Below are positions 21,213-21,350 of a DNA stretch of 42,734 nucleotides, piece by piece. The position numbers and the translations under genes are program-made. The stretch covers positions 1 through 42,734 of the IMG/VR virus record IMGVR_UViG_3300028666_000009; one strand, written 5' to 3'. This stretch comes from a virus. The notes beneath the pieces are model-generated. The model made no database searches. It was not told where the DNA came from and saw nothing but the letters and a program-made list of their open reading frames with translations. Within the stretch, counting starts at the first letter, position 1. Each line of letters begins with the position of its first letter.

Positions 21213-21350
21213 AGAAGTGGTGTAGATAAGAGTTACTTGGACTTGTAATCCAGAGGTCATACGTTCGAATCGTATACTATGCGTTTAGTGTAGTTAGCTC
21301 AGTTGGTAGAGCGCTTAAACCTCTTATCGCCTGTTCCCTTCTTTTGTTTT
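21213..21350 (+). ncRNA. Y-RNA-like element 1 with permuted tRNA module
   Basis: A ~138-nt RNA closed by a bulged helix: AGAAG/CTTCT (21213-21217/21338-21342), GG/CC (21219-21220/21330-21331), then GATAAGAG/CTCTTATC (21225-21232/21321-21328). Inside lies a complete tRNA in circularly permuted order: anticodon arm TTGGA-CTTGTAA-TCCAG (21237-21253), variable AGGTC, T arm ATACG-TTCGAAT-CGTAT (21259-21275), acceptor 3' strand ACTATGC, 5-nt loop GTTTA, acceptor 5' strand GTGTAGT, TA, D arm GCTC-AGTTGGTA-GAGC (to 21312). Rejoined it is a standard 72-nt tRNA core with anticodon TGT. Bacterial Y RNAs (YrlA class) have a Ro60-binding stem joined to a tRNA-like module; the Ro60 gene follows at 21657. 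A T-rich tail (21342-21350) may end transcription. Confidence 0.85.

What the first reader, a model, noticed from the sequence alone, without database searches (positions are those of the whole stretch)
21237..21313. Complete circularly permuted tRNA inside Y-RNA-like element 1
Read in order, the segment gives anticodon arm, variable loop, T arm, acceptor 3' strand, 5-nt loop, acceptor 5' strand, D arm. Reconnected, it is a faultless 72-nt tRNA core with seven acceptor pairs (two G-U), D stem GCTC/GAGC, T loop TTCGAAT and anticodon TGT. The acceptor end is closed by GTTTA, so it cannot be charged unless processed. It is the most tRNA-like form of the known tRNA mimicry by bacterial Y RNAs, and could recruit tRNA-modifying or -processing enzymes. 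It might even be cut to yield a real tRNA-Thr, as permuted tRNA genes in some algae are.
Basis: partly seen in the sequence, partly recalled or inferred. Interest (0 to 1): 0.9.

Follow-up and report, generated by a model that had tools for sequence, protein, structure and literature searches.

The report
Complete inside-out tRNA within phage Y RNA
Next to its Ro60 gene this phage carries a small RNA that contains a whole transfer RNA written in rotated order, anticodon arm included; the same design recurs beside Ro60 genes in many phages and bacteria and goes one arm further than the tRNA mimicry described for bacterial Y RNAs in the sources I could read.

Summary
Confirmed and extended. Window 21239-21315 holds all 72 core nucleotides of a tRNA in permuted order inside a Y-RNA stem (21225-21232 with 21321-21328), about 330 nt upstream of a Ro60 (TROVE/vWA) gene at 21657-23009. 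It is not unique. A scan that ignored the anticodon arm found 286 distinct permuted-tRNA Y RNAs; where a Ro60 gene lay within 4 kb (219) it was always on the same strand. At least 123 carry a full anticodon arm, in phages and bacterial chromosomes alike. The break therefore lies between tRNA nt 28 and 29, and the Y stem leaves the anticodon stem there. Inner stem, T arm, acceptor and the Levitt 15-48 pair also covary. Known YrlA RNA mimics only the D, T and acceptor arms. Most likely it is a Ro60-bound YrlA-type Y RNA whose effector end is a complete tRNA mimic for a tRNA-binding partner. Conversion to a real tRNA-Thr is unlikely. Function is inferred. I could not read the primary YrlA papers, so priority is uncertain.

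The parts
21225..21232 (+). Y stem, 5' strand (GATAAGAG)
   Evidence: 8 pairs with 21321-21328; formed de novo in the MFE fold; coordinates
21233..21238 (+). TTACTT motif shared by Y RNAs with and without an anticodon arm
   Evidence: does not covary with tRNA positions 42/43
21239..21251 (+). inner anticodon hairpin GGA-CTTGTAA-TCC (tRNA nt 29-41; anticodon TGT at 21244-21246)
   Evidence: inner pairs 30-40 and 31-39 covary in relatives
21252..21253 (+). tRNA nt 42-43 (AG), paired with 28-27 at 21315-21314
21254..21258 (+). variable loop AGGTC (nt 44-48)
   Evidence: Levitt 15-48 pair kept in 276/286 elements
21259..21275 (+). T arm
21276..21282 (+). acceptor stem, 3' strand (nt 66-72)
21283..21287 (+). 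linker GTTTA closing the acceptor stem; no CCA
21288..21294 (+). acceptor stem, 5' strand (nt 1-7)
21295..21313 (+). TA, D arm and G26
21314..21315 (+). CT = tRNA nt 27-28, outer anticodon-stem pairs
   Evidence: covariation with 43 and 42 in relatives
21321..21328 (+). Y stem, 3' strand (CTCTTATC)
21349..21480 (+). Y-like element 2: hairpin, T-arm-like hairpin, acceptor-like hairpin with CCA in the loop; no D arm (limits approximate)
   Evidence: fold z = -3.04; counterparts in L001, L002, L004, L023
21551..21645 (+). Y-like element 3, simple Y RNA (limits approximate)
   Evidence: TTACTT motif and Y stem
21657..23009 (+). Ro60-like protein (TROVE and vWA domains)
   Evidence: Pfam PF05731, PF25045; PHROG 850

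Best explanation
The element is a phage-encoded Y RNA of the YrlA kind. Its terminal Y stem is expected to bind the Ro60 protein encoded just downstream. The rest folds as a complete class I tRNA L-shape that is circularly permuted: the acceptor end is closed by a short loop, and the chain is opened between tRNA nt 28 and 29, where the Y stem leaves the anticodon stem. The RNA so presents a full tRNA surface, anticodon loop included, to a tRNA-handling partner (PNPase, as in Deinococcus, or tRNA-modifying enzymes such as TruB, DusA and perhaps the t6A37 or m1G37 enzymes), while holding that partner beside the Ro60 ring. SHOWN by sequence comparison: position beside Ro60, the Y stem, the full cloverleaf with the 28/29 break, tRNA-like tertiary covariation (15-48), and spread among phages and bacteria. 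INFERRED: transcription, Ro60 binding, the identity of the partner, and what the phage gains.
For: Ro60 gene 21657-23009. Rfam YrlA match 28.6 bits, E = 5e-4, over 21251-21318. 286 elements found without using the anticodon arm; 219 within 4 kb of Ro60, all on the same strand, median 328 nt. Distance TTACTT to T arm peaks at 26 and 25 nt. AC stem: 30-40 paired 72/78 (shuffle mean 42, max 52), 31-39 70/78 (33, max 46); 27-43 75/78 (46, max 57), 28-42 75/78 (42, max 51) with C-G, T-A, G-C and A-T types. Levitt 15-48 kept in 276/286 (shuffle mean 238, max 250) and purine 26 in all 123 full-arm elements. Pair count over 45 rows: 98.6% of cells paired, 0/500 shuffles reach it, but these rows were chosen for pairing. 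A covariance model finds independent members beside Ro60 in Xanthomonas phage Olaya (85.8 bits), Brevundimonas phage Gurke (81) and Caulobacter phage CcrColossus (76.6). Reconnected at 28/29 it is a standard 72-nt tRNA.
Against: No expression or binding data. The stand-alone fold is no more stable than shuffles (z = -0.89) and prefers another pairing of the AC region. No promoter was found on the + strand and no terminator in the array. The Rfam YrlA score is well below its gathering threshold (28.6 against 69). Many Y RNAs in the same arrays lack an anticodon arm, so that arm is not needed for every function. The partner is unknown.
Confidence: 0.8

Rival explanations
1. Permuted tRNA gene: the transcript is cut at the acceptor loop and joined across the Y stem to give a functional tRNA-Thr.
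For: All 72 core nucleotides are present and ARAGORN accepts the rejoined molecule. 29/286 relatives have NCCA directly after the acceptor 3' strand, as a real tRNA 3' end would (about 4-5 expected by chance).
Against: No bulge-helix-bulge at the break; permuted tRNA genes in PMC3978253 are known from six algae and one archaeon only. The window linker GTTTA has no CCA. The phage has a separate tRNA-Thr(TGT). Relatives carry many different anticodons, and some lack the arm. The Y stem and Ro60 neighbour would have no role.
Confidence: 0.03
2. Decoy for host anticodon nucleases or other tRNA-targeting defences, presented on Ro60.
For: A competitive-inhibitor role for YrlA against an anticodon nuclease has been proposed (PMC7790460), and this form adds the anticodon loop such enzymes cut. 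The loops are natural tRNA loops.
Against: Positions 34-35 vary widely, so no single nuclease target is mimicked. The arm is as common in bacterial genome contigs (39/87) as in viral contigs (84/199), so it is not a phage-specific device, although some of those contigs may be prophage.
Confidence: 0.15
3. Remnant or misread of two tandem tRNA genes (3' half of one, 5' half of the next).
For: Tandem tRNAs have the same arm order and do match the covariance model weakly (38.4 bits at 6032-6105, which spans the tRNA-Ala and tRNA-Trp genes). Linkers beginning NCCA suggest that tandem tRNA genes may be the origin.
Against: Here the two acceptor strands pair with each other, a Y stem encloses them, the outer tRNA halves are absent, and the acceptor strands covary across relatives.
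Confidence: 0.03
4. The anticodon hairpin is a passive spacer; only the D, T and acceptor mimicry of classical YrlA matters.
For: Classical YrlA has no such arm; in the same scan about 32 elements show a continuous helix there instead, and others have odd hairpins.
Against: The 7-nt loop, U33 (87/97), A38 (88/97), R37 (93/97) and the composite stem are conserved; 36-37 is U-A in 66/97 against 38% of 2260 real tRNAs in the same loci (Fisher 7e-9, not corrected for relatedness).
Confidence: 0.2

Closest known systems
YrlA-type bacterial Y RNA (Rfam RF02553; Salmonella structure PDB 6CU1)
   Same: Y stem, Ro60-linked gene, T arm - closed acceptor - D arm order, circular permutation relative to tRNA
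   Different: In the RF02553 consensus the helix entering the tRNA-like module takes the place of the anticodon arm; here a 2-bp outer helix continues into a 3-bp hairpin with a 7-nt anticodon loop, and the Y stem branches off between nt 28 and 29
Deinococcus Y RNA in the Rsr-PNPase complex (RYPER)
   Same: Ro60-bound tether RNA with an effector module (PMC8394870)
   Different: Known from literature only; not compared in sequence here
Circularly permuted tRNA genes of algae and archaea
   Same: Rotated arm order with a linker joining the acceptor ends
   Different: Those have BHB splice motifs and mature into charged tRNAs (PMC3978253); here there is no BHB motif and a Ro60-type Y stem at the break
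Viral tRNA-like structures (TYMV, BMV)
   Same: tRNA mimicry by a rearranged chain
   Different: Plant RNA virus 3' ends, non-circular permutations (PMC11472068)

Membership tests
Bacterial Y RNA, YrlA type | encoded next to a Ro60 (TROVE) gene | tested here: met
   about 330 nt upstream of Ro60 in the window; 219/286 relatives within 4 kb, all same strand
Bacterial Y RNA, YrlA type | long stem made by the 5' and 3' ends | tested here: met
   8 perfect pairs 21225-21232/21321-21328
Bacterial Y RNA, YrlA type | module with T arm, closed acceptor and D arm | tested here: met
Bacterial Y RNA, YrlA type | score above the Rfam RF02553 gathering threshold | tested here: not met
   28.6 bits against 69, local match only; the family model has no anticodon arm. 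So it is filed as YrlA-type, not as a member of RF02553
Bacterial Y RNA, YrlA type | bound by Ro60 | not testable with these tools
   needs pull-down
Circularly permuted tRNA gene | all tRNA parts present in rotated order | tested here: met
Circularly permuted tRNA gene | bulge-helix-bulge at the break | tested here: not met
   linkers TTACTT and TAAAC, no 4-bp central helix with 3-nt bulges (by inspection; definition from PMC3978253)
Circularly permuted tRNA gene | matures to a charged tRNA | not testable with these tools
   needs RNA data
Ordinary tRNA gene | acceptor, D, anticodon and T arms in standard order | tested here: not met
   the ARAGORN and Rfam readings of 21215-21283 lack a D arm

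The most novel reading that the evidence does not exclude
Y RNAs form a family of complete tRNA mimics in which the same L-shape is opened at different points (28/29; variable loop; acceptor end) to hang it on a Ro60-binding stem. The anticodon loop is a working part: it is selected for nt 36-38 (U36-A37-A38 or G36-G37), the determinants of t6A37/m1G37, so the RNAs dock on or are marked by enzymes that read the anticodon loop.
Probability: 0.3. Interest if true: 0.8.

Novelty: new variant of a known kind. Interest (0 to 1): 0.62.

Why it matters
The partner of most bacterial Y RNAs is unknown. A complete tRNA copy held on Ro60 narrows the search to proteins that recognise whole tRNAs, and the exact 28/29 break gives a testable structure. 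Cultured phages (Caulobacter CcrColossus, Brevundimonas Gurke) carry it, so it can be studied in the laboratory. It also explains some 'tRNA genes' next to Ro60 in public phage records as probable misannotated Y RNAs.

Tried and rejected
Thermodynamic stability as evidence: z = -0.89, rejected. Alternative YrlA-like closing helix without hairpin: offset +1 pairs 66% of cells against 84% for the hairpin model; this was the clue to the composite stem. First loose scans gave mostly noise and were replaced by a scan tied to the TTACTT motif and Y stem. DNA similarity to known phages: only tRNA-Gly stretches matched. Origin from the phage's own tRNAs: the best overall identity is 70% (to tRNA-Met), so there is no clear parent, although the anticodon loop equals that of its tRNA-Thr. 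RNA ligase or repair genes: none in the ORFs scanned (not exhaustive). Strict re-scan of Ro60-anchored loci finds the full arm in 12 of 31; this is a lower bound because it misses acceptors with a mismatch, such as Olaya's. Chen 2014 and Wang 2018 are not held; I did not try Sim & Wolin 2018.

Full report
What is there. The window is a 42,734-base virus record with a P22-type portal gene, 19050-21185, and a Ro60-like gene with TROVE and vWA domains, 21657-23009. Between them lie three Y-RNA-like elements. The first, 21225-21328, contains the reported feature.

Fold and numbering. The Y stem GATAAGAG/CTCTTATC encloses, in order, an anticodon hairpin, variable loop, T arm, acceptor 3' strand, loop GTTTA, acceptor 5' strand, TA, D arm, G26 and CT. 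The minimum-energy fold finds the Y stem, T arm, acceptor and D arm unaided, but pairs the anticodon region with the variable loop. A strict pattern scan finds one such element in the window's + strand and none in 400 random windows of the same dinucleotide content.

Relatives. Thirty viral contigs with the Ro60 gene were fetched; upstream of most lie arrays of Y-RNA-like elements. Pattern scans that did not specify the anticodon region added viral and bacterial loci. A scan that required a TTACTT-like motif, T arm, paired acceptor, D arm and Y stem, but nothing of the anticodon arm, gave 286 distinct elements in 585 loci. Of these, 219 lie within 4 kb of a Ro60 gene, every one on the same strand, at a median of 328 nt. 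The other 67 have no Ro60 gene within 4 kb in the fetched DNA; many sit near the end of a fetched stretch.

The anticodon arm is real. The distance from the motif to the T arm peaks at 26 nt (91 elements) and 25 nt (65). In 78 representatives (<85% identity) with 26 nt, tRNA pairs 30-40 and 31-39 form in 72 and 70 cases, against shuffle means of 42 and 33. The outer pairs were the surprise. The TT of TTACTT would give U.G and U-A/U.G, with no covariation. The two bases that follow the D arm and purine 26 pair with 43 and 42 in 75/78 cases each, with four Watson-Crick pair types, against shuffle means of 46 and 42. The anticodon stem is therefore composite: nt 27-28 come from the 3' segment, nt 29-31 from the 5' segment, and the Y stem leaves between 28 and 29. 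In the window alone the two readings cannot be told apart by length, as both give 72 nt; the family decides. Joined at 28/29 the window element is a standard tRNA-Thr(tgt) to ARAGORN.

Tertiary signs. The Levitt position pair 15-48 is G-C in 257 and A-T in 19 of 286 elements (276 observed; shuffle mean 238, max 250). Nt 26 is a purine in all 123 strict full-arm elements. In a 45-row alignment 98.6% of cells pair and no shuffle or slid version comes near, but those rows were chosen for pairing, so searches are the fair tests. RNAalifold on the same rows predicts the inner anticodon hairpin, T, acceptor and D arms. The related element L023 changes most acceptor and T-arm pairs and one anticodon-stem pair while keeping the pairing and the loop CTTGTA.

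Named phages. Xanthomonas phage Olaya, Caulobacter phage CcrColossus and Brevundimonas phage Gurke carry full-arm elements just upstream of Ro60. Gurke's annotated tRNA-Ser and an annotated tRNA-Gln of CcrColossus overlap these Y RNAs. The model also matches tandem tRNA genes, which share the arm order, but more weakly (38.4 bits in the window's own tRNA cluster). Hits elsewhere in the CcrColossus and Gurke genomes (up to 51 bits) were not checked one by one.

Anticodon loop. Loops look natural: U33 87/97, A38 88/97, R37 93/97. Positions 34-35 vary. U36-A37 occurs in 66/97, against 37.8% of 2260 real tRNAs in the same loci; C36-A37 and A36-A37 are rare. U36-A37 is the usual context of t6A37 and G36-G37 of m1G37 (general knowledge). 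This could be selection for modification or descent from one ancestral arm; the Fisher test is not corrected for relatedness. The full arm is equally common in bacterial genome contigs (39/87) and viral contigs (84/199), so it is not a phage-only device.

What is known. PMC8394870 says YrlA resembles the D, T and acceptor arms and is modified by DusA and TruB; PMC11472068 shows that PDB 6CU1 superposes on tRNA with a circular permutation; RF02553 has a closing helix where the anticodon stem would be and no anticodon loop. Phage YrlA has been noted (PMC7765460). None of the sources I could read describes an anticodon arm. The primary papers were not available, so the claim of novelty is conditional.

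Mechanism. Best reading: Ro60 binds the Y stem, and the tRNA copy docks on a tRNA-binding partner. Structure is supported by comparison; binding, partner and benefit are inferred. Maturation to tRNA-Thr is unlikely: no BHB motif, no CCA in the linker, a separate tRNA-Thr gene, and anticodons that differ between relatives. A nuclease-decoy role (raised for YrlA in PMC7790460) is possible but not favoured, given the variable anticodons and the equal frequency in bacterial contigs.

Noticed in passing
L588 3124-3270 (crAss001, downstream of Ro60): A stretch in normal tRNA order (acceptor 5' GGAGGGA - D arm - Y-like hairpin AATAGAGT/ACTTTGTT - GGGTC - T arm - TCCCTCC) folds with an open acceptor end: apparently a tRNA whose anticodon arm is interrupted by a Y-RNA stem.
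   Followed up: partly
L159, L174, L200, L239, L248, L262, L265, L522: A second permutation: the complete anticodon arm follows the D arm and the Y stem enters at the variable loop.
   Followed up: partly
window 21349-21480; L001, L002, L004, L023: Another Y-RNA type with a T-arm-like hairpin and an acceptor-like hairpin whose loop holds CCA, without a D arm.
   Followed up: no
acceptor linkers of 29 of 286 elements: The linker begins NCCA about six times more often than chance, as if derived from tandem tRNA genes with encoded CCA.
   Followed up: partly
L586 631-698 and L587 1269-1343: Public annotations tRNA-Gln (CcrColossus) and tRNA-Ser (Gurke) overlap Y RNAs next to Ro60 and are probably misannotations.
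   Followed up: partly
L589 about 959 and L019 about 2106: Elements with D arm before T arm, in normal tRNA order, that appear to lie inside a Y RNA; a further opening point at the acceptor end is possible.
   Followed up: partly
window 5076-6129: Cluster of nine tRNA genes, including tRNA-Thr(TGT) with the same anticodon loop CTTGTAA as the Y RNA.
   Followed up: partly
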